Source: Crossaster papposus (Eukaryota; Echinodermata; Asteroidea; Velatida; Solasteridae). From it: a DNA stretch of 64,000 bases. A program made the position numbers and the translations under genes. Below the pieces are notes generated by a model, which made no database searches, had not been told where the DNA came from, and saw nothing but the letters and a program-made list of their open reading frames with translations. Shown one piece after another: positions 4,817 through 62,345 of this stretch (within the stretch, counting starts at the first letter, position 1; the number at the start of each line of letters is the position of its first letter). The stretch spans positions 186,001-250,000 of the forward strand of contig JBAIAA010000238.1 in assembly GCA_037893245.1 (NCBI GenBank), read 5' to 3'.

Positions 4817-6283
4817 TTAGTCCGCTTCCAGCAAGAGGCACAGCTTGGTGATAGGCCTCCTCAGTTCTGATGACCCGATGCGTACTGTGACACTTCTCGC
4901 CAAGTTGTCTTCACCTGGAGTAGCTTCAGTGACTCGTCCCATGGGCCATCTGTTCCGCAAGAGGTTGCTGTCCGCAACCAGGACGACGTCTCCAACCCTG
5001 ATGTTCCGCGCCTCCTTGTGCCACTTCTGCCGCTCCTGTAGTCTGACTAGGTATTCACGGCTCCATCTCCGCCAGAAGACATTGGTCAGGTACTGCACCT
5101 GGCGCCATCTTTTCTTCGGGTATATGTCTTCCTTGACGAAGATGCCAGGGGGTAGCCTTTGGTTGGAATCCAGGCGCAATAGATGATTGGGTGTAAGTGC
5201 CGCTTCGTCTTCATGGTCGCTAGAGATTTTGGTGATAGGTCGGCTGTTCAGAATTGCCTCTACCTCGCAGAGTAGTGTCTGGAGGCCTTCATCATCGAGT
5301 TTGATCGGTTGTTCCTTCATAACGCCGTAGAGCACCTTCCTCGTTGAGCGGATGAGCCTTTCCCAGGCTCCACCATGGTGGGAGGCTAACGGGCAGTTGA
5401 ACTCCCACTGAATACTCAACTGTTTCAGACTAGAGTCGATCTTGGCTTGATTCCATTTCTCTATCTCCTCACGCATCTCTTGCTCAGCACCTACCAAGTT
5501 AGTTCCGTTGTCGGATCTCAGGAACTTGACGGTTCTTCGTGCTGCAAATCTCCGCACTGCATTGATGCAAGAGTCTGCGGAGAGGTCTTGAGCAACTTCC
5601 AGATGAACTGCTCGGCTAGCCATACAGGTAAAGATCACTCCGTAGCGCTTTAGAATGCTACGACCTCGCTTGATCTCGAAGGGTCCGAAGTAGTCAACAC
5701 CAGACTTCATGAAGGCTGGCTGGTCTGGTTCCAAACGTTCCTCAGGCAAGTTGGCCATCTTCTGTACCTGGAGGCGTCCCCGGTACCTACGGCACAGCAC
5801 ACACTTTGCAATAATGCTGCGCACCAATAGACTGGCCCTTGGAATCCAGTACTTGCGTCTCAATTCTGTGAGGGTGCTGTTGGTTCCGAGGTGTCCTACT
5901 CTTTGATGGGCACTGATAAGTATCAGCCTGGACACTTGAGAATCCTTGGGGAGGATTACCGGATGCTTGACATCTACTGGCAACTTTGAATGTCGGAGCC
6001 GCCCACCAACTCTCAGCAGTCCCACTTCGTCCATCATGGGGTCGAGTTTTCGCACAGATTCGGTTAGGTTATGGCTCTGCTGAACATATTTGATAAGTTC
6101 TGTGCCTGCTGTCTCCAATTCGTCCACACTGAGGGGATTTGGACTCTTGTATTGTGATGCCTCTGGCTCAACACTGGAAACCTGGCGCTGTTTGAAGAGC
6201 CTCTGTGCTCGCAGCATCCATGCCACTGTTGTCTTCAGTCGCCTCCAGGTTGAGCAACGGTCGATGAGCTGGTCGACAGTCAT
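4817..6283 (-). CDS. BEL/Pao integrase with C-terminal DUF5641-type domain
   Basis: The 488-residue frame encodes retroelement integrase, which joins the cDNA to host DNA in the nucleus. An HHCC zinc-binding region lies near residues 115-165 (AHQRVGHLG, then CVLCRR). The DDE core has D in GVDYFGPF (about 196), D in RSDNGTN (about 256) and E in GGAWERLIR (about 306). The last 90 or so residues match the domain that follows integrase in BEL/Pao elements. It is in the same frame as the upstream gag-pol frame, separated only by one stop codon and 30 open codons, so it is normally part of one polyprotein. The M at 6283 is simply the first in-frame ATG after that stop and is probably not a natural start. 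Confidence 0.88.
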   Translation of the reverse strand: MTVDQLIDRCSTWRRLKTTVAWMLRAQRLFKQRQVSSVEPEASQYKSPNPLSVDELETAGTELIKYVQQSHNLTESVRKLDPMMDEVGLLRVGGRLRHSKLPVDVKHPVILPKDSQVSRLILISAHQRVGHLGTNSTLTELRRKYWIPRASLLVRSIIAKCVLCRRYRGRLQVQKMANLPEERLEPDQPAFMKSGVDYFGPFEIKRGRSILKRYGVIFTCMASRAVHLEVAQDLSADSCINAVRRFAARRTVKFLRSDNGTNLVGAEQEMREEIEKWNQAKIDSSLKQLSIQWEFNCPLASHHGGAWERLIRSTRKVLYGVMKEQPIKLDDEGLQTLLCEVEAILNSRPITKISSDHEDEAALTPNHLLRLDSNQRLPPGIFVKEDIYPKKRWRQVQYLTNVFWRRWSREYLVRLQERQKWHKEARNIRVGDVVLVADSNLLRNRWPMGRVTEATPGEDNLARSVTVRIGSSELRRPITKLCLLLEAD

Positions 6284-6373
6284 GGTACCTTCATGGGTCT
6301 TAAGGGTAGTAGCATGAACTTGCTTGACTTCCGGGTCTTTGGCTGGTAAGTCTCTGACGATGTCTGACCTCGG

Positions 6374-9300
6374 TTACGTGGACTCCGGCTCCCACAGAAA
6401 TGCTGGCCCCTGAAACCAGAGTGTAGGATCTAGTTTCGGATGAATACCCCTTGAAGCTATATCTGCTGGGTTTTCCAAGGTTGGGACATGGCGCCACTGC
6501 TCAATGCTGGAGCCCTCTTGTATGGTGGTGACACGGTTTGCCACAAAGGTGTGGAACCTGGTCGTCTTGTTGGCAATGTACCTCAAGACGGAGGTACTGT
6601 CTGTCCAGTAGTAGACGTCAAACTGCAACTCCATAACTGAGGTAATTAGTGCGACAAACTTCACTGAAAGACTAGCTGCGGTTAGCTCCATCCTCGGAGT
6701 AGTTACCTTCTTGAGAGGGGCAACCCTTGATTTGCCCATAAGCAGATTGCAGAAGACTCTGCCTGAACTATCCTGGAGTCGTGTGTAAATGGCAATGCCA
6801 TAGCCCTCGTCGGAGGCATCAGAAAAGGCGTGCAGTTGGCAGGTCTCGGGCTTTGCAAAGTCACTTGGTCGCACACTTCTTGGTAGTGACATATGCTCCA
6901 ACTTGACAATGTCCAGCAGCCACTGGTTCCATACAGCCATTTCCTTGTCCCATCCAAGGCCCTGCTTGCAGAGCCGCTGCAGCATAATTCTAGCTGGAAG
7001 GATGAATGGCCCTGCTAGGCCCAAGGGGTCGAAGACACTGCTGACGACAGACAGAATGCCTCTGCGTGTGGCTGGACGGTCCTTCAGATTCACCTTAAAC
7101 CCAAAGGTGTCCTCTAGAGTATTCCAGAAGACTCCCAACGCCCGCTCTGATGGGGGTTGGTCACTGCTCTCAATTGTCAACTGCTGCGACTTTGATCTCT
7201 CCTCTGGTGGAATAGAGTCGTTCACTGCCTGATCATTGCTGACCCACTTATGCAAGTTGAACCCTCCACGCCTGCACACCTCCTTGACGATTCTCCTGGT
7301 TTCAATAGCTTCCTTGGCATCAAAAACTGCCTTCAGATAGTCATCGACGTAGAAGCTTCTCGGGATCTCAGGATGCTGGTTGTCTGCAGCACACTTACGC
7401 AGAGCTGCAGAAGCGCAAGATGGCGATGATACAGCACCGAAGGGGTGCGACTTCAGACGATAGACCTCTGGTGGTCGGGATGTGTCTCCATCTGGGAACC
7501 ACAGGTAACGTAGGTAGTCTCGGTGGTGTTCAGAAACCCTGACTTGGAAGAACATGCCCTCAATGTCTCCCATGAGTCCAACTGGTTGCTGCCTGAAGCG
7601 AAGCAGCACATCTACAACTGGGTTCGTAAGGATGGGTCCTTGGAGGAGTACATCATTGAGTGAAACTCCTCTGGTCTTTGCCGAGCAATCAAAAACTACT
7701 CTTATTTTGCCCGGTTTGGTGGGGTTGTAGACGCCATGGTGAGGCATGTACCATTGGCGCACTTGGACACCGCTGTCATCGGATGCTTCGGTGACCTTCT
7801 CTGCATACCCTTTCTCAGTAAGCGAGCTCATGAAGGTCACATAGTCGTGGTGGAAGATCGAATTGTTTCTTAGCTTCTTCTTCAGGGACATCAAACGGTC
7901 GATAGCATGACATTTGTTGTCTTCTAGCTTGCAAGCTGGATCTCGAAATGGCAGGTCGCATTGGTAGTGACCATCGACTAGCTTCAAAGATCTACCGACG
8001 ATTTTCTCAAATTGCTTGTCTTCAACTGAAGGCTCCTTTTTACTGTCCACCAGGCGCTCTGGAAAATCCATGTCTATGGACGATCTGATCATGTCTTCCA
8101 ACCTCTGAAGTTGTCCTGCTTCATCTCTTGCTAAGGCTAGTTGAAGGTTGGAAAGATGACGGGGCTCCTCTCCGCCTCTGACCATGCCCCATATTATCCA
8201 TCCAAGGACTGATCTGGCTCCATGGGGCTCGCGTACTGACCCTGTCTTCAGCTCTTGTGGTGTATACGCGGCTGGGACGTTATTGCCTATCAGCATTCCC
8301 ACCTCGGCCTGGATAACTGGAAGCTTTATCCCTCTAAGGTGTTCAAATCCATCAACATCTTCTTGCGTTGGCATGAGGTCTCTGGTGACGGGCATCTCGG
8401 ATTTGGTGTAGACCAAGGGTAGCTTTACGGCAGGACCTGAGTCCAGTCCGCAAACTTCCAGCCCGGAGATACGGTGGGTGGTTAAATGCTGCGTCTGTCC
8501 CATGGTGTGTAATTCCATGGTAGTGGCCTTGCCGGTTACTCCAAGCTGCTGTGCAAGGCCCTCGGTGCAGAAAGTCACGTTGCTGCCCGGGTCGAAGAAT
8601 GCGTAGGTCTCCACTGTTGTGTTGGTGGTTGGGGACCTGACCCTCACTGGTATTATGGCCATAGTGCAAAGACCCGCGCCGACTCCCATGTGGGAACTTG
8701 CCCTATCCTTGCTTGGAGCCATGTATGTGGAACATGAGTTCCCGTGGTCGGTGGTCTTTGGTGTCTCTTGCTTTTGAGACTCTTCTTTTATCTTCTGTTG
8801 CTGCTCTCTTTCCTTGTGAAGTACTGTGTGGTGCAGTGCGCCGCACTCTTTGCATTTGGCCCTCGCTCTGCATTGTTTACTCTGATGGCCACTCCTGAGG
8901 CAACCAAAGCAAAGTCCCTTAGACTTCAGAAATTGCAATCTGTCCTCCAGTGGTGTGGCTCTGAGCTTTCGGCACTCCTGCATCATGTGTCCTGATCCTT
9001 GACAGAAACTGCATGGCCTTGAGCTCGCTATATCGGCTGCTGAGTACCTGGTACCTGAGTCCGCAGAGAGGTGCTTCTCCTGCCTACTGGTCCCGACAAA
9101 CTCAGTTGCTCCGGAAGCGCACCCAATCTTTCTGAACGGTGACTGGTGAGGGCGTCCTCCTCCAATGACCGGTTTAACTTCCTTGGGTTTGTATCCTAAT
9201 GCAAGTCGTCCGTATACTGGATCTGTTGCCTTCCTAGCCTCTCTTTGGACGAGGTCTACCAGATGTGTGAAGGTCACTGGCTCGTTGTTGTCCTTCTTAT

Positions 9301-10876
9301 TCATGACGATATTTCGCCATCTGTCATGCAGATAGAAGGGGAGTTTGGAGACCAGTCGCTTAATGTTCTCAGAATACTCCAGAACCCTTGCCGCATTCAT
9401 GGAGTGTACAGCATTTTTACACTCAACAAGGAATATTGAGAATGCGTCAAGTCCAGATGGGTTATCCGGTCTGATCTCCGGCCATCCAAGGGCCCGCTGA
9501 ACGTAAGCATTGGCCAGGAGATCCACATCGCCATACCGCTTCTCTAATTCTTTAAGTGCAGCCGGGTAGCCTACATCCGCAGAAAGACAGCTATATCCGT
9601 TCACGATATGGTGCGGTTCTTCCTCGGTGAACTGCTCTAAGTAGTTCATCCGTTCGTCATCATCCACTGTGTTAGCAACGACTCTAGCCTTAAACTGGCG
9701 GATAAATCTCTTGTACTTCAAGGGGTCTCCCTTGAACTTAACCAAGTCAGAGCTAGGCTTCCTGATCTCCTTCACTATGTGGTGCACTGCGGTAATGGAT
9801 GACGCTGCAGTGGGGTTCGGACTCTCGCTGCCCTCCTGAATGGCACTTGAGCGGCCAGTTTTATCTTCCTGCTTCAGGCTGTCTGTCTGTTCCTGCTGAG
9901 TTTGTTGTACTGAGTCGTTTGCGGGGCTAGTTTCCTCTGCTACTACTTCGGTGTTAGGCTCTTTAGTGTCTTGAGTAAGGGCCTTTTGGGAGGGCTTCAT
10001 CACGGTACTTGTGGGTTCACCTGCAAGATGGTTGGTGTCTGAAACTGGTGTTTGGGGGAGATATCTCACCTGGGGTTGAGCTGACATGGTGAACGGTGAT
10101 GTGACTTGCGATGCTTGGGGGATGTACTCTGGTGCGGCAGGATTGAAAGCTAGACCCAATGGTGAGGGTGTTCTAGAAGTGAGCAGGGGTAAGGCACTCA
10201 AGTTTAGCTCGTCTCGAATCTCACTCTGCTCCAGTTCATCTAGGATTGCAGCTTTTGCACTTGAAACCTGCAATTCGGTCCTGAGCTCCAGTTCTTCTTC
10301 TTTCTGCCTGAGTCTCAGCTCTTCTTCATTCTTCCTTGATTCAAACTGAAGCCTCTCCTCCTCCAACTTCCCTTTCTCTTGGAGTGCTCTGGTTCGGGCC
10401 AATAGCTCCGCAGTCTTCTGATGCTCCATTGCTCTGGCTACTGATAAGGAACTGGAAATACGGCTCCCAGCGGAACGAGAAGTATGTGACCTCACTGACC
10501 TCACTGACCTCACGCTGTCCCTATCGAGTATGCTGGTGTGGTACACTAGCCACTCATTCAATGTGGCCTTAAAGTCCTGAAAGCTACTGAGTTCAGGCTG
10601 TAACTCTGCCTGCACTGTAGGCAGCTGCTCTTCTGTAACCAGTGCTGAATATTCGCCGTGGTGAATCAAAAATGTTTCATATTGCTGAAGCCATCTTGAG
10701 TGCTCAGCTCTAACTTTGTCCACATCTGGTGGAAGTACTAACAGCAACGGTTTGATGCTGTCCTTTATTCTGATAAGAGCCTGGGCACTGTCTTGCCGAC
10801 TCTCCATCGCTAACTTTACCTTCGCCCGTGTGGCCATAGCTGTGGCCTTGGTTTCCATACCATCAAGGGCCTCCAT
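6374..10876 (-). CDS. BEL/Pao gag-protease-reverse transcriptase-RNase H polyprotein
   Basis: The 1500-residue frame opens 79 bases inside the 5' LTR boundary. In order it shows: a charged coiled-coil region (about 150-225); the DUF1759-type gag core (about 370-520); three zinc knuckles (CSFCQGSGHMMQEC near 621, CFGCLRSGHQSKQC near 655, CKECGALHHTVLH near 671); an aspartic protease with FFDPGSN near 760; a reverse transcriptase with the YVDD active site near 1175; and an RNase H with SDASDEGYG near 1350. It ends at a TAA at 6374-6376 just after RNase H. That stop lies in an otherwise open frame that continues into integrase. Either this copy is defective or expression of integrase needs stop-codon readthrough; the near-identical LTRs mean the change, if inactivating, is recent. 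Confidence 0.9.
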   Translation of the reverse strand: MEALDGMETKATAMATRAKVKLAMESRQDSAQALIRIKDSIKPLLLVLPPDVDKVRAEHSRWLQQYETFLIHHGEYSALVTEEQLPTVQAELQPELSSFQDFKATLNEWLVYHTSILDRDSVRSVRSVRSHTSRSAGSRISSSLSVARAMEHQKTAELLARTRALQEKGKLEEERLQFESRKNEEELRLRQKEEELELRTELQVSSAKAAILDELEQSEIRDELNLSALPLLTSRTPSPLGLAFNPAAPEYIPQASQVTSPFTMSAQPQVRYLPQTPVSDTNHLAGEPTSTVMKPSQKALTQDTKEPNTEVVAEETSPANDSVQQTQQEQTDSLKQEDKTGRSSAIQEGSESPNPTAASSITAVHHIVKEIRKPSSDLVKFKGDPLKYKRFIRQFKARVVANTVDDDERMNYLEQFTEEEPHHIVNGYSCLSADVGYPAALKELEKRYGDVDLLANAYVQRALGWPEIRPDNPSGLDAFSIFLVECKNAVHSMNAARVLEYSENIKRLVSKLPFYLHDRWRNIVMNKKDNNEPVTFTHLVDLVQREARKATDPVYGRLALGYKPKEVKPVIGGGRPHQSPFRKIGCASGATEFVGTSRQEKHLSADSGTRYSAADIASSRPCSFCQGSGHMMQECRKLRATPLEDRLQFLKSKGLCFGCLRSGHQSKQCRARAKCKECGALHHTVLHKEREQQQKIKEESQKQETPKTTDHGNSCSTYMAPSKDRASSHMGVGAGLCTMAIIPVRVRSPTTNTTVETYAFFDPGSNVTFCTEGLAQQLGVTGKATTMELHTMGQTQHLTTHRISGLEVCGLDSGPAVKLPLVYTKSEMPVTRDLMPTQEDVDGFEHLRGIKLPVIQAEVGMLIGNNVPAAYTPQELKTGSVREPHGARSVLGWIIWGMVRGGEEPRHLSNLQLALARDEAGQLQRLEDMIRSSIDMDFPERLVDSKKEPSVEDKQFEKIVGRSLKLVDGHYQCDLPFRDPACKLEDNKCHAIDRLMSLKKKLRNNSIFHHDYVTFMSSLTEKGYAEKVTEASDDSGVQVRQWYMPHHGVYNPTKPGKIRVVFDCSAKTRGVSLNDVLLQGPILTNPVVDVLLRFRQQPVGLMGDIEGMFFQVRVSEHHRDYLRYLWFPDGDTSRPPEVYRLKSHPFGAVSSPSCASAALRKCAADNQHPEIPRSFYVDDYLKAVFDAKEAIETRRIVKEVCRRGGFNLHKWVSNDQAVNDSIPPEERSKSQQLTIESSDQPPSERALGVFWNTLEDTFGFKVNLKDRPATRRGILSVVSSVFDPLGLAGPFILPARIMLQRLCKQGLGWDKEMAVWNQWLLDIVKLEHMSLPRSVRPSDFAKPETCQLHAFSDASDEGYGIAIYTRLQDSSGRVFCNLLMGKSRVAPLKKVTTPRMELTAASLSVKFVALITSVMELQFDVYYWTDSTSVLRYIANKTTRFHTFVANRVTTIQEGSSIEQWRHVPTLENPADIASRGIHPKLDPTLWFQGPAFLWEPEST

Positions 10877-10955
10877 TATTTTGCTCTAATTCACCACTGT
10901 TGATCTTGAGTATTGTCTCTTAGCAACTGACTCTGGGGTTGTCCTCAGCGTTGAC

Positions 10956-32407: not shown

Positions 32408-32756
32408 AGGTAGGATACACCATTGGTAATTGCTTGAATTATCATGAATGAGTAGATTTGGGGGTTGTATTTTATAGTAAACATCGTTTAACTGAGCTGT
32501 CCAAAGTTTTAAAATCTTGGATGCCGAGAAAAGCACGAAAAACAGCGGGTTTTTTCAACCGGCGTCACAAGCAGTTATTGTTATGTTATCTTTGTTTTTT
32601 CGCGATCGCCGTTAATTTTTCGGAATATTTACAGGATATCTAGCGCAATAATTTTGCTGGATGCCTAGAATAATTATTTACTTACCAATGAGTAAGATAT
32701 TTCCTAATAATTCGGTAGTAAATATTTTCGATATCTGCAAATGGTGTATACTACCT
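32408..32756. mobile_element. TTAA-flanked MITE, AGGTAG family (349 bp)
   Basis: The element is AGGTAGGATACACCATT at the left and the complement of AGGTAGTATACACCATT at the right, with TTAA at 32404-32407 and 32757-32760. The paralogous copy has the uninterrupted site near 2235 (GTTTTAGATC). Inside are GCCGAGAAAAGCACGAAAAA and the GCGCAATAATTTTGCTGGAT words seen in all members. Confidence 0.85.
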
Positions 32757-36451: not shown

Positions 36452-37682
36452 CAGTGTTGTATTCGAGTCCCTGCAAGTCCTTTCACAAGTCCTTTCACAA
36501 GTCCTTTCACAAGTCCTTTCACAAGTCCTTTCACAAGTCCTTTCACAAGTCCTTTCACAAGTCCTTTCACAAGTCCTTTCACAAGTCCTTTCACAAGTCC
36601 TTTCACAAGTCCTTTCACAAGTCCTTTCACAAGTCCTTTCACAAGTCCTTTCACAAGTCCTTTCACAAGTCCTTTCACAAGTCCTTTCACAAGTCCTTTC
36701 ACAAGTCCTTTCACAAGTCCTTTCACAAGTCCTTTCACAAGTCCTTTCACAAGTCCTTTCACAAGTCCTTTCACAAGTCCTTTCACAAGTCCTTTCACAA
36801 GTCCTTTCACAAGTCCTTTCACAAGTCCTTTCACAAGTCCTTTCACAAGTCCTTTCACAAGTCCTTTCACAAGTCCTTTCACAAGTCCTTTCACAAGTCC
36901 TTTCACAAGTCCTTTCACAAGTTAAGTCCTTTCACAAGTCCTCTCACAAGTCCTCTCACAAGTCCTCTCACAAGTCCTCTCACAAGTCCTCTCACAAGTC
37001 CTCTCACAAGTCCTCTCACAAGTCCTCTCACAAGTCCTCTCACAAGTCCTCTCACAAGTCCTCTCACAAGTCCTCTCACAAGTCCTCTCACAAGTCCTCT
37101 CACAAGTCCTCTCACAAGTCCTCTCACAAGTCCTCTCACAAGTCCTCTCACAAGTCCTCTCACAAGTCCTCTCACAAGTCCTCTCACAAGTCCTCTCACA
37201 AGTCCTCTCACAAGTCCTCTCACAAGTCCTCTCACAAGTCCTCTCACAAGTCCTCTCACAAGTCCTCTCACAAGTCCTCTCACAAGTCCTCTCACAAGTC
37301 CTCTCACAAGTCCTCTCACAAGTCCTCTCACAAGTCCTCTCACAAGTCCTCTCACAAGTCCTCTCACAAGTCCTCTCACAAGTCCTCTCACAAGTCCTCT
37401 CACAAGTCCTTTCACAAGTCCTTTCACAAGTCCTTTCACAAGTCCTTTCACAAGTCCTTTCACAAGTCCTTTCACAAGTCCTTTCACAAGTCCTTTCACA
37501 AGTCCTTTCACAAGTCCTTTCATAAAGCCAGTCGCAAGTCCTTTCATAAAGCCAGTCGCAAGTAACCGGTTGAACATTGACAAAGGAATGCTTTTGTTAA
37601 CAGTTCATCTGAATAGCTAGTGACTTGACTTAAGACTGAAAGACTTGTGATGGACTTGCAGGGACTCGAATACATCACTCTG
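36452..37682. mobile_element. hAT-type MITE containing a large 12-bp array
   Basis: The ends read CAGTGTTGTATTCGAGTCCC and the complement of CAGAGTGATGTATTCGAGTC. They are flanked by an 8-bp duplication with one mismatch (CCACTATG 36444-36451, CCACTATC 37683-37690), diagnostic of hAT elements. The short relative at 54634-54847 has the same ends and a perfect 8-bp duplication but only two 12-bp units. Here nearly 90% of the element is the array at 36475-37520. Confidence 0.88.
36475..37520. repeat. Minisatellite AAGTCCTTTCAC / AAGTCCTCTCAC, about 87 units
   Basis: There are three blocks. About 37 units carry CCTTTC. A junction with a 2-base disturbance (AAGTTAAGTCC near 36920) is followed by one CCTTTC unit and about 39 units carrying CCTCTC. 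About 10 units with CCTTTC end the array. Within each block the units look identical. Because 12 is a multiple of three and no unit contains a stop, five of six frames stay open; these are not genes. Confidence 0.95.
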
Positions 37683-38925: not shown

Positions 38926-40139
38926 ATACCACCAAAACAACATCATGACTAATTCAATCACGATGGCATCTATTTTTATCTAAAAAAAATAAATATATAA
39001 GAATAATCAAATTAAGAAGAACTGCATATATATCAATGCTTGTTCCCATTTTGTATAAATTAAATCAGTTGTTGCTCAAGGCTGACGTTATTACATTATC
39101 CTCTCTCTTTTGTGCATAAAAAAACATATGCTCTGGTCTGTGTAGCACTAATTGACGTCAGAAAGTGGGATTGTCCGGTTATAGTGATTTGTAGATGGTA
39201 ATTCTTTTTTTTAAACCTTAAAGCTCGTAATTATTTGATTTATTTGATAGACTTACGATGTACAGCTTTGCATGATCTATTGTACATGTGTTTATGTACT
39301 ATGTTTTCCATTATTAGGCCAGTTATAATTAATTATTCATTTTTAGGTTTTCAATCGTTACCCCCTGTCCCAATTTTCACGCCCGCCCCAATATGTTTGT
39401 TTTTTTCTCAGCAATGCCACAGGTGTCTGTGTTTATTTCAGCAGGTTTTTCTTTGCTTGGCGCATATACTGTAACTGCAATTAATAATAATAATAATAAT
39501 AATAAAACAGCATTTATATAGCGCAATATAAATCAAAGATTCCTCAAAGCGCTTTACAAAAATATTATAAAATATTGTAAACTGTTAAATACTGCAGTAC
39601 CGCACATAGTTAAAATACCATTAAAATAAAATACTGTAAAAACTACATTGTAAAAACCCCAATCACTATTATTCCTAGTAAATGCATGGACAAAAACAAA
39701 TGCATGTAACGCTTCAAATGAAAACTAAAACGTGAATAAAATACAGACTTATGTTCAATTACAGTTAAAAAGATGAGTCTTAAGTAATTTCTTAAAATCA
39801 TCTACCGACTTGGCACATCCAATAGACAATGGAAGCTCATTCCAAAGAAGAAAAAATAAAAAATAACTAGAACTACGTCTGTTCAAGGAACAGAACATAG
39901 GGCTTTTCCGCTTTCGCATTTTTTAGAGTATTTGTTTTCAAAAAAACCGAATTTAAGTTAATTTAAACAGATTAAAATAAATTGAAACTGATTAAAACGA
40001 TGACGTCACACGTTTCTGAACTTTTTGTGCAACTATCTATCACCTAACAACACAAAATGATTGTGTTATGTTAACACGATCCTTTGCTGAGATATGCCTT
40101 CAACGTCTAAAAACGTAATAATTCAAATATAATCGTAAT
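38926..40139. other. Unassigned intron sequence with AAT microsatellite
   Basis: 39482-39506 is an (AAT)n run followed by CAGCATTTATATAGCGC and AAAGCGCTTTACAAAAAT. This motif combination is common in repetitive elements of marine invertebrates, so 39482-39900 is probably a transposon fragment. No gene was seen. Confidence 0.45.
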
Positions 40140-42600
40140 ATGACGTAACATTTGTCAACATGACGCTAGAGGGCGCTATAACATGTTATGACGTCACCAA
40201 TATTTATTTTGAAAAATACAATCTAGCCAGGTCCTAACATCGTTGAAAGTAAGTTCACATCGTTTTTTACTTTTAAATTATAAGAAACTTCCGGTTTGGA
40301 CCGGAAGGAAGTGTCAGGTCTTTTTGCATGTAATACAAATTATGAAGACCATGGATTAATCTATCAATCCTCCTAAAACTCTAAATCAGATCTCTTACAG
40401 TTGATTTTATATTGATTTTCAAAGATTAAATTTATAAATATTTGGTTGCTTGTAATCTGACACTTGATGACGTCATCGTGACGTAATTAACAGAAAGCTC
40501 GAGAGCTGTCTTAACTTTGCTATTTCAAGCAAAAATCTGGATTATATCTATCGCGGTTGATTTTTAAGCGACGTTTTAAGGTTTTAAGGTCTTTTCATTG
40601 TAACTTCCGGTTTGGTGACGTCATCAATAAATATCTTTCTCAATATGTTCTTAGCACGAAGCTGATTATATACACCGGTTATAAAGTGATTTTAGCAAAC
40701 TTCGCTACACACATCAACAGATTATTCATTTTAACAATTTTTCAACCTGCCGCTAGAGGGCGCTATAACGTGTTATGACGTCGCCGGTAATTATTTTGAA
40801 AAGTTTATTCTAGCCAGACACTAACATCGTTGAAAGTAAGTTCATATCATTTTTCAGTTTTAAATTATAAGGCACTTCCGGTTTGGACCGGAAGGAAGGG
40901 TCACGTGATTTCACGCACGGGAGATAAAATTAAGATCCTGGATTATCCTATCTATTGCCACACAAATTAAGTTTCGGTCTTTTGCGGTTGATTTTGTATT
41001 GATTTTCAAAGATTAAATCAATTACACCTTTAAGATGACGTCACGTGACCCCTGATGACGTCACTATGACGTCTGTCTGCGAGACACCAGTTCACTATAG
41101 GGCCTTCACCTGGGATTAAGTTTTATGGAAATACGACTTTGTTTTCTATTAAAAGTGACGGGCAGAAAAAACGTGTACAAAGTCTATGGGTTTTAGGTTA
41201 CTAAAAGAAAAAAAGAAGAAGAAGAAGACGACCGGAAGGAATGGTCACGTGATTTCACGTACAGGAGATAAAATGAATATCCTGGATTATTCTATTAATT
41301 GCCACAAAATTCAAGTTTCGGTCTTTTGCGGTTGGTGTTTTATTGATTTTCAAAGATTAAATTAATTGCGCCTTTAAGATAAGGTCGCGTGGCCCTGATG
41401 ACGTCTTCCTCGTGGTGTCTGTCGGCGAGACTGGAGTTCACTATTGGGTCTTCACCTGGGTCGAGTTTATGGAAATACGACTTTGTTTTTCCGTTAAAAG
41501 TGCTTTGAATTGTGCAAGCAACGTTTACAAAGTCTACGGGGTTGGATTCTGCGTAGCCGAAAGCGTGTTTACCTACCTGTCGTACGCGGCGCCCTTCCTC
41601 ATGGGCAACTTGATGACGTCATCCTGTTTCACAGGTTGGCGGCTAGTGTCATCTTGGGTGAGCGTAAATGTGCTTGCACGAACGATGTCAGTGGTGATAC
41701 ATTCGCTCAATACATAATGCACTATCGGTGTATACGTACATGTACTAGCATGTATATTATACGTGTGGCACGCACACGTAAGGGGTCAATGCTTTTTGCA
41801 CCTAGGCCAAAACGATTACATTTCAAGCGTGCCGCAGGGTATGTTCAAGTTCGTTTTTTGCCCCAAAACACAGGGAAGTTTGAGAACTACTTTTACATTA
41901 ACCTTTAGAGCAAAAATCAAGATTGTATCTGTCAAGTTTAATTTTTTAGGAATTTTCAAAGGAAAAAGAGTCTTTTCATTCTAACTTCCGGTCTGGTGAC
42001 GTCATAATTTTTTCTTCCCGTCAACTTGTTCCTAGCATGAAGCTGATTAAATACACCGGTTATAAAGTGATTTCAGCAAACTTCGCCACACACATCAACA
42101 GATTATTCATTTTAACCATTATTCAAACTGCCGCTAGAGGGCGCTATAACATGTTATGACATCACCAATTTTTTTTTGAAAAATACATTGTAGCCAGACA
42201 CTAACATCGTTGAAAGTAAGTTCATATCATTTTTCACTTTCAAATTATGAGGCACTTCCGGTTTAGACCGGAAGGAAGGGTCACGTGATTTCACGCACGC
42301 GAGATAAAATCAAGATCCTGGATTATTCTATCTATTGCCACAAAAATCAAGTTTCGGTCTTTTGCGGTCGATTTGTTATTGATTTTCAAAGATTAAATCA
42401 ATTACACCTTTAAGATGACGTCACGTGACCCCTGATGACGTCACCATGACGTATTTCTGCGAGACACGAGTTCACTATAGGGTCTTCACCTGGGTTAAGT
42501 TTTATGTAAATACGACTTTGTTTTCTATTAAAAGTGACGGGCAGAAAAAACGTGTACAAAGTCTATGGGGTTTAGGTTACTAAAAGAAAAGAAGAAAAAA
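40140..42600. repeat. Cluster of inverted copies of the dispersed block
   Basis: Two complete units (about 40600-41215 and 41980-42600) and two partial ones (40140-40600, 41225-41560) share AGAGGGCGCTATAAC, CTAACATCGTTGAAAGTAAG, GGCACTTCCGGTTT and GACCCCTGATGACGTCAC. They are the reverse complement of segments at 21600-22250 and 28200-28830. Every unit contains several TGACGTCA-like palindromes. No protein is encoded. Confidence 0.7.
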
Positions 42601-43393
42601 AGAAGAAAAAAAAAAATCAGAACAAAAACAAAGGCTTTTTCGCAAAATTGCGAAAAAGCCAAAGAAGAAAAAAACAAAACATTCCCCTCCCGATCGAGTT
42701 GTATATTTTATTGTTCATTCTAAGTACTGAAAATATAAACATTTATTTTAACTTGCCTTTACAAAAAATGCCTGATTGCCGAAATGTCTTACAAAGGGGT
42801 CGAATTTTTGGAAAATATCCACTTATTTGAAAGTAAATGTAATTGTAATGATTCTACATGTAGAACACATCTAGCAAAATGATTGCGGTTAATAGATTTA
42901 ATACCCTGTAATTGTTCCGGAAAAAAATTAAATTAAAAACAAATTAAAAATTGTGGTTCACTTGTCTCGAGGGGGGTGTTTTAACTTGTTGGGGGAAGTG
43001 GAACCATGCATAAACAATTTGATCAAACGGATGGCGAAACCTCCATGAATTATTGATTGCAGACAAAACCATCGGTATTGTGGGAAAAAAACAAATTGTA
43101 AGCTGCGTTCATTTGACTTATAAAAATCCATAGGCAAGGTTTGCCTTCTGGGCATACAGCTTGCATGGTGGACTCGAAGGAACTTTGTTTTTTATTTACT
43201 ATTAACTGCAGCAGGATTTGATGGAAATAAAAAATCTTTGGAAGGGAATGTCATTATAAATGTCTTTGCAGATTTGGCAGATGTTTTCTAGCAACAAAAA
43301 CTGGCTTTTGAAAAGATTACAAAAAAATCTGAATTCCATCTCATTGGGAACAACGTAAATGAAAGATATCTCTGCTCGCTTTAATTTGACCAC
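42601..43393. other. Unassigned intron sequence
   Basis: An A-rich tract at 42580-42620 is followed by fragments resembling the interior of the AGGTAG MITE (near 42790-42945). Nothing else was recognised. Confidence 0.4.
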
Positions 43394-58555: not shown

Positions 58556-59868
58556 TCAAACAAGGAATGTGATTATGTCCACCAACATAAACCAACGCTT
58601 CAGCGGTGGTTCTATTAGATCCTGTACAAAAAGAAAATCGACTGATGGATTTTGCCGAATTCGGTCCAGTACTCCGCGGCGCAGAGGCAGTAAGGAGTTG
58701 GGGTTAACATACCTGGTTGTTGGGCCCGTATTCTGAGACTCTCTTTCACCGGCCGTCTCCTCTTGGTTTCCAGACTGTGTGGAGGTACTGGGTCTGTCTG
58801 CAGCTTGACTCACTAAATCCCCCGCTTGCATTTTCTTCCTGGTCGAGGTTCTGGTGTTCCTCCTGTCACTGGCGAGCTCTGGTGAGCTCGGGTGCTCATT
58901 GCCCGACAGATCATGGCCGTCATCTTGAATCCCTTCGGCGGACGTCTCTGATGAAGAAGTGCCTGACGAGGAGGTATGAGCCTCGGGCTGCCAATCCTCG
59001 TCTTCTGTGTCGGTGTAGCCAACCTGGATCCCATACAAGGAACAGGCAGCATCCGTGGGGTTCACCTGGGAGGGTTCCACTGAAGACGTTTCGGAGTTAT
59101 CGGTGCTAGACGATCCCAATGAGGTATCATCAGAGTCCTCCCTTGCTTGTTGCTGGTTTGTCGAACGGCTGGATTCACCAGCGGCTTGTGCTGGTTGGCC
59201 ATCATTTGAAGTGGGCTGCCCGCCTCGGCTACTCGAAGGAACAGAGATTTGATCCCCTGGTGTTGACTGTGGCGATTCTTCCTCCTCTGCGGGGCTGAAC
59301 TCTGCATTGGGGCTCTCTGTGCCGTCCCACTCGGGAGAGTAGTCTTCATGCCACGATTCTTCGCCGAATTCATCCGGAGACTGATCCCTAAACCCGTCAT
59401 AACTAGTATCTTCCCACTCAGGGCTGTCAAACACAGGGCTATCTCTACGGCTATGGTCTGATATGAAACTACTACTGGAGCTTTCACTGTCACTATGGCT
59501 GCGACTATGACTGCGACTATGACTGCGACTATGACTGCGACTATGACTGCGACTACAACTATGGCTACTTCTGTAACTGTGATTACTGCTGTAGCTGCTG
59601 CTCCTGCTCCTGCTGTGGCTTCTGCTCCTACTCCTGCTGTGGCTTCTGCTCGTGCTGCGGCTTCTGTTAGGGCTACGGCTTGTGCTTCGTCTCAGGAACC
59701 CATCTCTTTGCAACTCCCCTCGTAATGCGTTTAGTTGGACATCTGTATGGTAACTTTCGTCTAGCAGACCTTCTTCTACGCTGCCGACACGCTTCAACAG
59801 GTTCTCCTCACATTTTACCATCTTGTTCTCCATATCCTTCAAGCGTTTGTTGAAGGTCTGTTCCATGA
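58556..59868 (-). CDS. RING/TRAF-zinc-finger protein, exon 3 (coiled coil and SR-rich tail)
   Basis: The exon follows TTGTTCCTCAG, enters in phase 1 and runs 1313 bases to the stop at 58556-58558. It encodes a predicted coiled coil (MEQTFNKRLKDMENKMVKCE), an SR/SH-dipeptide region of about 60 residues (from SRSPNRSRSTSRSHSRS), and a long acidic, serine-rich, probably disordered tail. The GACTGCGACTATGACTGCG repeats at 59500-59560 (plus strand) make the SR/SH region length-unstable. The last 20 or so codons border a mariner relic, so the natural C-terminus may have been altered. Confidence 0.75.
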
Positions 59869-60125
59869 CTGAGGAACAAAGAAAAAACACAAAACAGTTG
59901 GGTCATAAAACACACATTTATATATCGGTATATCGATCGTTCGGTATAGCAATTGTTAGCTTCTGGTCCATCAGGAGCCCATATTTAAATAGCACCCTAT
60001 TGTAGCCTACTTCAAGTGCAAAATAAAATTCAGACCAGTCTCATAGGGTTTAGGCACAGGGTGTCAAGTGGCATGATGAGTGATGTTAAGGTACGGAATT
60101 CTTTCCCAAGTATAAACCTGCTTAC

Positions 60126-60353
60126 CTTTCATGCAGTTTTTTAACTCTTTTATGCAACTGTGCAAATGCATGGTAGACGCCGTCACTGGTAACCCGCATC
60201 CCTTCTTGCACTTGACCAGGCGGTACGCACATTCCTTCTCGTGCTTCAGCATGTCCTTGCGCAGGATGTTACGGACGCAGCCGCTGTTGAGACAGCCTAC
60301 CAGGCCAAAATCGCAATCCTTGCCATGACGCTCAAACATCTCCAGCTTGACGC
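60126..60353 (-). CDS. RING/TRAF-zinc-finger protein, exon 2 (TRAF-type zinc fingers)
   Basis: The 228-base exon ends with AAAG|GTAAGC and carries TRAF-type zinc-finger pattern: FERHGKDCDFGLVGCLNSGC then HEKECAYRLVKCKKGCG and HLHSC. It enters and leaves in phase 1. Its 5' boundary is the end of a TTAA-flanked MITE: the acceptor AAAG|GC is formed by the duplicated TTAA plus the host AG. Read directly after exon 1 it continues the first zinc finger (RGC-VKG-VKLEMFERH). Confidence 0.8.
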
Positions 60354-60359
60354 CTTTAA

Positions 60360-60762
60360 AGGTAGGATACACCATTAGTAATTGCTTGAATTATCATGAA
60401 TAAGTAGATTTGGGGGTTGTATTTTATAGTAAATTTTATAGTAAATACCGTTTAACTGATCTGTCCGAAGTTTTACAGTCATTGATGCCGAGAAAAGCAC
60501 GAAAAACAGCGTTTGATTTCAACCGGCGTCGAGCAGTTATTTTTATGTTATTTTTGTATTACGGCGATTGCGAAAAAAATAAAATAACATACGAATAATT
60601 GCTCGACGCCTGTTGAAAAAAATCTATTTTTCAGAATAATTACAAGAAATCTAGCGCAATCATTTTGCTCGATGCCTAGAATCATTATTTACTTTTAATT
60701 GAGTATTTCTTAATAATTCGGTAGTAAATATTTTTGATATCTGCAAATGGTGTCTCCTACCT
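60360..60762. mobile_element. TTAA-flanked MITE, AGGTAG family (403 bp), inside the intron
   Basis: AGGTAGGATACACCATTAG at the left, the complement of AGGTAGGAGACACCATTTG at the right, TTAA at both sides (60356-60359, 60763-60766). Inner words agree with 44062 and 47232. Confidence 0.87.
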
Positions 60763-61411
60763 TTAAAAGGTACATGTAGTATACACCATTTGCAAACATT
60801 TAAAAAAAAATACTAAATCATTATACAACTGTGCTGTGATGTGGGATATGACATTTTGAAAACCTGAGGGACACATAGCACAAGAGGCGAAGCATGCTAA
60901 ATCCATCAAGTCCCAACGGAAATGTCAAATGGTTGGATCCTGTTGGATTCAGCAGGATTAGGGATAAAATATGAATCCCCTAACCCATTCATTTTCAAAA
61001 ATTACAGCAAAAGCCAATGGTATATATAATAGTGGCGAGTTATTCCACGCCGGAAACGATTCTAATCGATTCCTTGATTCTTTTTTTTTGAGGAATTGAT
61101 TCCTTGAAGTGGTCGATTCCATTCCGAAAAGATTTGATTCCAGAAAGCGCCCAGCGATTCTGAAGACCTGCGAGACTTTGCAATCCCAGCAATTCTTTGA
61201 AGAAACAACACGGCCGTGATTTATAAGCCAACACAAAGAACTTTTGCCACTGCTAAAACTATAGTACTTCCGATTTCAGTGTGAAAAATTACGATGGACA
61301 ATTGGATATGGACATTCAATCACGTTTCTACATTATGATTACACGTCTTGAATGAATTATATTGAGCAATTAACTACTCCCGACAGATATGGCATTTTTT
61401 ATTAGGAACAA

Positions 61412-61715
61412 ATGGAATGGCGATTCCTGGGCGGAATGGCGATTCCTGGGGGGAATGGCGATTCCTGGGCGGAATGGCGATTCCTGGGCGGAATGGCGAT
61501 TCCTGGGCGGAATGGCGATTCCTGGGCGGAATGGCGATTCCTGGGCGGAATGGCGATTCCTGGGCGGAATGGCGATTCCTGGGCGGAATGGCGATTCCTG
61601 GGCGGAATGGCGAATCCTGGGCGGAATGGCGATTCCTGGGCGGAATGGCGAATCCTGGGCGGAATGGCGATTCCTGGACCGAATCACGAATCCTGGACCG
61701 AATCACGATTCCTGG
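61412..61715. repeat. 19-bp minisatellite GGAATGGCGATTCCTGGGC, about 15 units
   Basis: Units are nearly identical, with variants GCGAATCC and a terminal pair in which CGGAATGG becomes CGAATCACG. The 19-base period keeps three frames open on each strand, giving spurious repetitive ORFs. The array lies in intron 1 of the RING gene. Confidence 0.93.
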
Positions 61716-61757
61716 GTGGAAATGCTAGAGTCGCCCACCACTAGCGTATACTACTAC

Positions 61758-62034
61758 CTTTAACACAGCCCCGGGACACGTTGCGGCACTTCATGAGCAA
61801 ACGGTTGATCATGTTGCGGACGATGGGCAGAACCGGCTTGAGCCGAGACTCGCTGAGGTGCTTGCGGCAGCTCGGGCAGCTGCGGTGCATGTTGAGCCAG
61901 GTGGTGATGCAGACACGGCAGAAGACGTGCTGGCAGGGGCTCTCCAAGGGGGTGGAGAGAACATTATGGCAGATGCAGCAGATGAGATCTGGGTCAGGCG
62001 GGGTCACAAAGTCGTCCAATTCAAACTTGGACAT
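61758..62034 (-). CDS. RING/TRAF-zinc-finger E3 ubiquitin ligase-like protein, exon 1
   Basis: The three-exon gene (61758-62034, 60126-60353, 58556-59868) encodes 605 residues. RING fingers of this type bind ubiquitin-conjugating enzymes and transfer ubiquitin; with the TRAF-type zinc fingers it resembles RNF41/RNF151-like ligases, but substrate and pathway are unknown. Exon 1 starts at ATG 62034 and carries a complete C3HC4 RING (LICCICHNVL, then PCQHVFCRVCITTWL, then CPSCRKHL) near residues 19-60, followed by RNMINRLLMKCRNVSRGC, the start of a zinc finger. It ends in phase 1 at AAAG|GTAGTA. Without splicing the frame stops five codons later inside the MITE end. The long SR-rich and acidic tail is unlike the short human RNF151. 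The start fits RING proteins that begin with a short acidic leader. Confidence 0.82.
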
Positions 62035-62345
62035 GCTAAAACAAGCGCCAAAACCAGTGCTGGGAATGAAAAAAATTACACATCAATTCGGGCGATTCAC
62101 AATGCAGTGCGCCACCAAGCGTTTGACTCAAAAGAGCCACTTTTAAACTTTACGGTCGACTTCTTCCGTACATCATACTGTAGTGAAATATCTATTCTTC
62201 ATTGTTCACGCGAGGTACAACACAAACATAAATGTATCCGGAAGCGTCGTTGACTAAAACATTGTTATTTGCAGAAAAAAAATTGGAACTTTAATCGTGC
62301 GCGTCCAAAAAGACTACCGTTTTACAAACTGATGCCGACCTTGAT
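62035..62345. mobile_element. MITE copy in the 5' flank of the RING gene
   Basis: 62085-62345 is nearly identical to 54222-54480 (AATTCGGGCGATTCACAAT end, then GTGCGCCACCAAGCGTTTGA). The element starts 51 bases upstream of the start codon, so the 5' untranslated region or promoter is probably built from it. Its other terminal repeat is not found here. Confidence 0.7.

What the first reader, a model, noticed from the sequence alone, without database searches (positions are those of the whole stretch)
60354..61757. An intron that is exactly a TTAA transposon insertion, inside a zinc-finger exon of a RING gene
Exon 1 ends GTGTTAAAG and exon 2 begins GCGTCAAG on the minus strand. Between them is a segment bounded by TTAA copies and ending in AGGTAG...CTACCT, the ends of a MITE family with at least three other complete copies here. 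Splicing at AAAG|GTAGTA and TTTAAAG|GC removes the insertion plus one TTAA and rejoins the first TRAF-type zinc finger in frame. The acceptor side of the MITE provides TACTAAT and a pyrimidine-rich stretch. This matches the idea of introners (transposons that create introns), but with a TTAA-targeting element in an animal gene. Seen directly: the ends, the TTAA pair, the open frame across the join. Inferred: that it is spliced and newly gained.
Basis: partly seen in the sequence, partly recalled or inferred. Interest (0 to 1): 0.9.

Follow-up and report, generated by a model that had tools for sequence, protein, structure and literature searches.

The report
Intron built from two jumping genes
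In an echinoderm-like gene for a ubiquitin-ligase-like protein, the first intron is built from two small jumping DNA elements inserted at one TTAA site in the coding sequence, one carrying the start splice signal and the other lying at the end splice signal, so it looks like an intron made by transposons, although splicing itself was not seen.

Summary
Removing window 60354-61757 (minus strand; GT..AG) restores GTGTTAAAGGCGTC and joins a RING/TRAF-finger protein that aligns without a gap at the junction to 7 of 7 homologues. The insert is not one MITE but two TTAA elements of two families, head to tail: el1 (60767-61759, split by a hAT-like insertion) and el2 (60360-60762). The donor AG|GTAG lies in el1's terminal repeat, the branch-point-like TACTAAT in el2; the acceptor AG is exon sequence after the TTAA. 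Termini and TTAA fit Kolobok rather than piggyBac. Both haplotypes carry the intron; one holds a further 925-bp insertion. Five of five other loci in the genome that match across the site have no intron there, but three of these also lack the ordinary intron 2 and one is only distantly related. It is not brand new: el2 is about 6% from its family consensus. No sign of mass intron creation: 20 AG-flanked copies sampled, 12 with both ends, 5 of these running into another copy, none in recognisable coding sequence. Splicing and orthologous gene structures could not be seen. Verdict: probably a transposon-made intron; a new member of a known kind.

The parts
61758..62034 (-). Exon 1, coding part: RING domain and the first half of zinc finger 1
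61760..61763 (-). Left TTAA target-site copy, in exon 1
60767..61759 (-). el1: TTAA MITE of a second family, carrying the donor AG|GTAG in its left terminal repeat; exon 1's last two bases (AG) come from it
   Evidence: the sequence after the hAT-like insert matches genomic copies that begin TTAAAGGTAGTATACACCATTTGCTTTTGCTG (L053) and similar (L050, L054, L055); L051 and L052 have altered starts
61030..61743 (-). hAT-like insertion inside el1's left end (TAGTGGTGGGCGA..TCGCCACTA). No clean 8-bp duplication: the adjacent bases are GTATACGC and TTATATAT; with two more bases counted to the insertion at each end they are TAGTATAC and ATATATAC
   Evidence: hAT label recalled
61414..61721 (.). 19-bp minisatellite, 16.2 copies, inside the hAT-like insertion
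60763..60766 (-). Middle TTAA shared by el1 and el2
60360..60762 (-). el2: MITE of the abundant family (terminal repeat AGGTAGGATACACCATT), holding the branch-point-like and pyrimidine-rich stretch of the acceptor
60374..60380 (-). TACTAAT branch-point-like motif in el2; TACCAAT in 38 of 49 copies, TACTAAT in 2 of 49 (el2 and one copy that is not in this intron)
60356..60359 (-). Right TTAA target-site copy; the following AG (60355-60354) is original exon sequence and serves as acceptor AG
60126..60353 (-). Exon 2: rest of zinc finger 1 and TRAF-type fingers
59869..60125 (-). Intron 2, ordinary GTAAGC..TTCCTCAG
58556..59868 (-). Exon 3: SR-rich tail to the stop codon

Best explanation
A TTAA-targeting, Kolobok-like MITE inserted into the coding TTAA of GTGTTAAAGGCGTC. 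Its terminal repeat begins AGGTAG right after TTAA, so the insertion brought a donor (AAAG|GTAG); its 3' side brought a pyrimidine-rich end; and the exon's own AG after the duplicated TTAA became the acceptor. Removing GT..AG therefore restores the old coding sequence base for base. A second MITE from another family then landed in one of the flanking TTAA copies, so today the donor belongs to el1 and the branch point and pyrimidine stretch to el2. The intron later took a hAT-like insertion and, in one haplotype, a second. Shown: the ends, both families, the restored site, the conserved open frame, both haplotypes. Inferred: splicing in cells, the order of the two insertions, and that the ancestor had no intron here.
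For: Both intron edges coincide with ends of repeat families carrying TTAA. GT..AG exists in just one of the eight equivalent registers of the 7-bp edge repeat TTAAAGG (sequence). Spliced protein: no gap at the junction in 7 of 7 homologues (sea cucumber, two urchins, crinoid, two mussels, sea slug), finger residues C83, C90, H102, C106 invariant. The 1,818-bp CDS is open in both haplotypes with 1 difference. Five of five non-self loci that match across residue 92 read through it in one frame without an intron (four read, the fifth, a distant RING protein). Neutral simulation at el2's divergence (0.063): 73 of 2000 CDS copies stay free of stops, indels not counted.
Against: No RNA data. The donor GTAGTA is weak beyond +3 (consensus recalled). 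Three of the five intronless loci (C1012, C154, C817) match also across the place of intron 2 without a break, so these paralogues may be intron-poor or retrocopies. The gene structure of orthologues was not seen. If less divergence accrued after insertion the intact frame tells less: 394 of 2000 simulations stop-free at half, 806 of 2000 at a quarter. The related empty site found for another copy (window 32408-32756) reads TTTTAGTTTTAG, not a clean single TTAA.
Confidence: 0.82

Rival explanations
1. The two elements break the gene: the insertion is a disrupting allele or the gene is a decaying pseudogene, and no splicing occurs.
For: Reading into el1 meets a stop after a few codons (ORF 61741-62082 ends ..VKGSSIR). 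Frame restoration is automatic for any insertion with a target duplication.
Against: Exons intact over 605 codons in both haplotypes although el2 is about 6% from its consensus and el1 already carries a nested insertion; conserved fingers; AG in the right register has only about a one in ten chance.
Confidence: 0.09
2. An older ordinary intron sat here and its content was replaced by transposons until only their ends remain at the splice sites.
For: Introns commonly collect transposons (general knowledge); this one did so repeatedly.
Against: Requires TTAA element ends to coincide with both splice sites and the flanks to be exactly one TTAA duplication apart. Five of five other loci matching across the site lack an intron here.
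Confidence: 0.06
3. A variant of the best explanation: el1 and el2 inserted together as one composite (dimer-like) unit rather than in two steps.
For: Head-to-tail copies sharing one TTAA are common: 6 of 20 sampled AG-flanked ends run into another copy, and L013/L030 (the same place), L031, L035, L039 show such junctions. KolobokP multimers are described (PMC9587614, passages seen).
Against: El1 and el2 belong to different families, and the searches with el1 and with the whole intron listed no further locus with the same pair besides the two haplotypes; only 40 candidates were scored in each.
Confidence: 0.15

Closest known systems
Introners, as surveyed by Gozashti et al. 2022 (PMC9860276; seen: abstract and start of introduction, part 1 of Results and Discussion, section 11, passages)
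   Same: Non-autonomous DNA element with TSD and/or TIR makes an intron on insertion into an exon; their Chrysochromulina case has a 4-bp TSD, carries the 5' splice site and co-opts the 3' site, the same logic as here
   Different: Introners are found there as groups of similar introns in one genome; here one intron was found. They report only two animal groups. The main text has no 'TTAA' and no 'echinoderm'
Kolobok superfamily and its MITEs (PMC9587614, PMC6004289; passages seen)
   Same: TTAA duplication, 5'-RR..YY-3' termini, AGG start as in T2-MITE (terminal AGGRR)
   Different: Terminal AGGTA, not AGGRR; no transposase linked to these copies here
Kolobok-H and other DNA transposons found inside recently gained fungal introns (PMC8476143; passages seen)
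   Same: A Kolobok element associated with a gained intron
   Different: Fungi; the passage seen does not describe element ends coinciding with splice sites
piggyBac MITEs
   Same: TTAA target duplication
   Different: piggyBac differs from Kolobok in its termini (PMC9587614, passage); its usual CC start is recalled

Membership tests
Introner | Transposable element whose insertion in an exon forms an intron bounded by the element | tested here: met
   Sequence anatomy; splicing itself not tested
Introner | Several similar introns in one genome, similarity reaching the splice sites | tested here: inconclusive
   20 of 2,147 AG-flanked ends sampled; 12 had a recognised 5' end, 5 of these run into another copy; none in recognisable coding sequence
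Introner | Spliced in RNA | not testable with these tools
   No transcript data
Kolobok superfamily | TTAA target-site duplication | tested here: met
   40 of 54 near-full-length copies have TTAA at both ends under a simple rule, some of them the same copy seen in overlapping loci or both haplotypes; the other 14 were not examined
Kolobok superfamily | 5'-RR..YY-3' termini | tested here: met
   AGG..CCT consensus; criterion from PMC9587614
Kolobok superfamily | Kolobok transposase mobilises the element | not tested
   No autonomous copy sought
piggyBac | Termini of piggyBac type (CC start, recalled) | tested here: not met
   Elements start AGG

The most novel reading that the evidence does not exclude
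TTAA MITEs in this genome are ready-made intron parts: the consensus terminal repeat carries a donor at a fixed distance from TTAA, and an insertion followed by AG can be spliced, so many introns across echinoderm genes may have arisen this way, some assembled from elements of different families that take over each other's splice signals.
Probability: 0.15. Interest if true: 0.82.

Novelty: new member of a known kind. Interest (0 to 1): 0.52.

Why it matters
Transposon-made introns are documented in protists and fungi, but a survey of 3,325 genomes found introners in only two animal groups (PMC9860276, section 11). A clean case in an echinoderm-like genome, with TTAA Kolobok-like elements and two element families sharing the work of donor and acceptor, would give an animal example whose empty site can be read base for base and tested by RNA and by comparison of species.

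Tried and rejected
Rejected: one single MITE (the insert is two elements plus nested insertions). Rejected: a strong age claim. I first computed el2 at K2P 0.141 from the consensus, but the alignment showed that many of the differences sit in a variant central segment; without it el2 is at 0.063, rank 31 of 49. The 49 copies lean towards el2, because most loci were chosen by similarity to it; exact duplicates were dropped, 54 to 49. The C-to-T change making TACTAAT is not evidence of selection: another copy has it too (2 of 49). The pairing of the intron's first 25 and last 32 bases (-17.9 kcal/mol) had no control and includes bases of the hAT-like insertion; I give it no weight. The empty site for the copy at 32408-32756 is not a clean TTAA. 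Open-frame tests across other copies gave nothing of note; 15 frames of 60 aa or more from 40 copies; apart from the gene itself none looked coding by eye, none was scanned against Pfam; 12 of 20. The 20 were the first of 60 I picked from the 100 places listed, all on contigs C1 to C3, with several clustered places left out. One of the 7 homologues, Elysia, has five extra residues just before C90. Counts of head-to-tail junctions in the whole genome, and of TTACCAAT-type ends followed by AGG, were asked for and never answered. Literature: no paper held joins 'introner' with 'echinoderm' or with 'MITE' and 'TTAA'; one joins 'Kolobok' and 'introner'. Other searches, listings seen. Other passages seen: PMC13326754, PMC7789003.

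Full report
Setting. The window is C238:186001-250000 of a 1.02-Gb, 1,841-contig assembly. The finding's gene encodes 605 residues: RING (Pfam zf-C3HC4, E 5.1e-7), a TRAF-type finger match (zf-TRAF, E 1.6e-5, 26 bits against a cut-off of 27) and an SR-rich tail. Over residues 1-170 the search listed 7 homologues: Holothuria leucospilota 61%, Lytechinus pictus 59%, Diadema antillarum 57%, Anneissia japonica 51%, two mussels 49% and a sea slug 47%. So the genome is very likely an echinoderm's; the species is not known. A second haplotype of the locus lies on C125.

Anatomy. On the minus strand exon 1 ends GTG TTAA AG at 61758; the intron is 61757-60354; exon 2 starts GCGTC at 60353. The junction is phase 1 after K92, within finger C83-C90-H102-C106. 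From 5' to 3' the insert holds: TTAA; el1 (61759-60767); TTAA; el2 (60762-60360); TTAA. Taking out GT..AG leaves GTGTTAAAGGCGTC, which is also the site expected before insertion. The repeat at the two edges is TTAAAGG, 7 bases, so eight registers of removal give the same product; only one starts GT and ends AG.

El2 belongs to a family with terminal repeat AGGTAGGATACACCATT. A profile found 126 matches, 54 of them near full length, in 46 sequences of 320,665 bases in all, some overlapping or haplotype copies and many chosen for similarity. Under a simple rule 40 of the 54 show TTAA at both ends. In the whole genome AATGGTGTATCCTACCTTTAA occurs 20,364 times, reversed control 0, and with AG after it 2,147 times, control 0. 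For the copy at window 32408-32756 a related place on C125, flanks 85% and 92% identical, lacks the element; it reads TTTTAGTTTTAG, so it marks the insertion to within a few bases but is not a clean TTAA.

El1. Its left end TTAAAGGTAGTAGTATAC is cut by an insertion (TAGTGGTGGGCGA..TCGCCACTA, 61743-61030, hAT-like by recall, no clean target duplication) and goes on as CATTGGCTTTTGCTGTAATTTTTGAAAATGAATGGG. A genome search with the right part of el1 gave 41 matches, the two haplotypes among them, from 40 scored of 1,902 candidates. Of six matching places fetched, four begin at TTAAAG and carry the same start (L050, L053, L054, L055); L051 and L052 have altered starts. So el1 is a TTAA element of a second family, and the intron's donor lies in its terminal repeat. 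Head-to-tail copies sharing one TTAA are usual here: 6 of 20 AG-flanked ends sampled.

Kinship of the elements. Kolobok makes TTAA duplications and ends 5'-RR..YY-3', unlike piggyBac (PMC9587614, passages); T2-MITEs start AGGRR (PMC6004289, passages). AGG..CCT with TTAA fits Kolobok. No transposase was sought.

Is it spliced? Not observed. The case rests on four points. (a) The joined protein has no gap at the junction in 7 of 7 homologues. (b) The 1,818-bp CDS is open in both haplotypes, 1 difference, while the intron has changed: haplotype C125 has a further 925-bp insertion flanked by CTTCAGAA. (c) AG follows TTAA in only 10.5% of intact ends, part of them neighbouring copies. (d) El2 is 0.063 from its consensus outside the variable centre; at that divergence 73 of 2,000 simulated unconstrained CDS copies had no stop, 394 at half and 806 at a quarter of it. 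Point (d) alone is moderate. TACTAAT at 60374-60380 lies about 21 bases before the acceptor. Against: the donor GTAGTA is weak beyond position 3 (consensus recalled).

Is it gained? The protein search of the genome (96 candidates, all scored) listed five other loci matching across residue 92: C902, C1012, C154, C817 at 30-42% identity and C261 at 34%. All five read through it in one open frame with no intron (for four; for C261, a distant RING protein, which by recall resembles RAG1). Three of them (C1012, C154, C817) also match across the place of intron 2 without a break, so these paralogues may be intron-poor or retrocopies; this supports gain but does not prove it. Orthologous genes of other species could not be read.

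Is it part of a wave? Of 20 AG-flanked copies fetched from 2,147, 12 had a recognised 5' end and 5 of these 12 run into another copy. Among the other seven the longest joined frame was 70 residues (L062), and none was recognisably coding. This sample is too small to exclude rare cases, but it gives no support for an introner burst.

Judgement. A transposon-made intron in an animal gene is the best reading (0.82), working like introners that carry the donor and borrow the acceptor (Gozashti et al. 2022, PMC9860276). It is not filed as a member of an introner family, since the multi-copy criterion was not shown to be met. 'Newly gained' is not supported.

Noticed in passing
L024:467-1391 (C125): A 925-bp insertion present only in one haplotype of this intron, flanked by 8-bp repeats CTTCAGAA and with ends TAAGG..CCTTA: a hAT-like (recalled label) polymorphic insertion.
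   Followed up: partly
window 4817-10885, minus strand: Two adjacent long open frames (1503 and 518 aa) that look like a Gag-Pol retroelement; label by eye, not scanned.
   Followed up: no
window 36474-37546: 12-bp minisatellite, 89 copies, 97% matches.
   Followed up: no
L013/L030, L031, L035, L039, L056, L059, L063, L065, L069, L075: TTAA MITE copies standing head to tail with one shared TTAA, as el1 and el2 do.
   Followed up: partly
window 39867-42660: About 2.8 kb present in one haplotype and absent from the other.
   Followed up: no
L080 (C261:718480-719080): A RING-bearing open frame resembling RAG1 (recalled resemblance, not tested).
   Followed up: no
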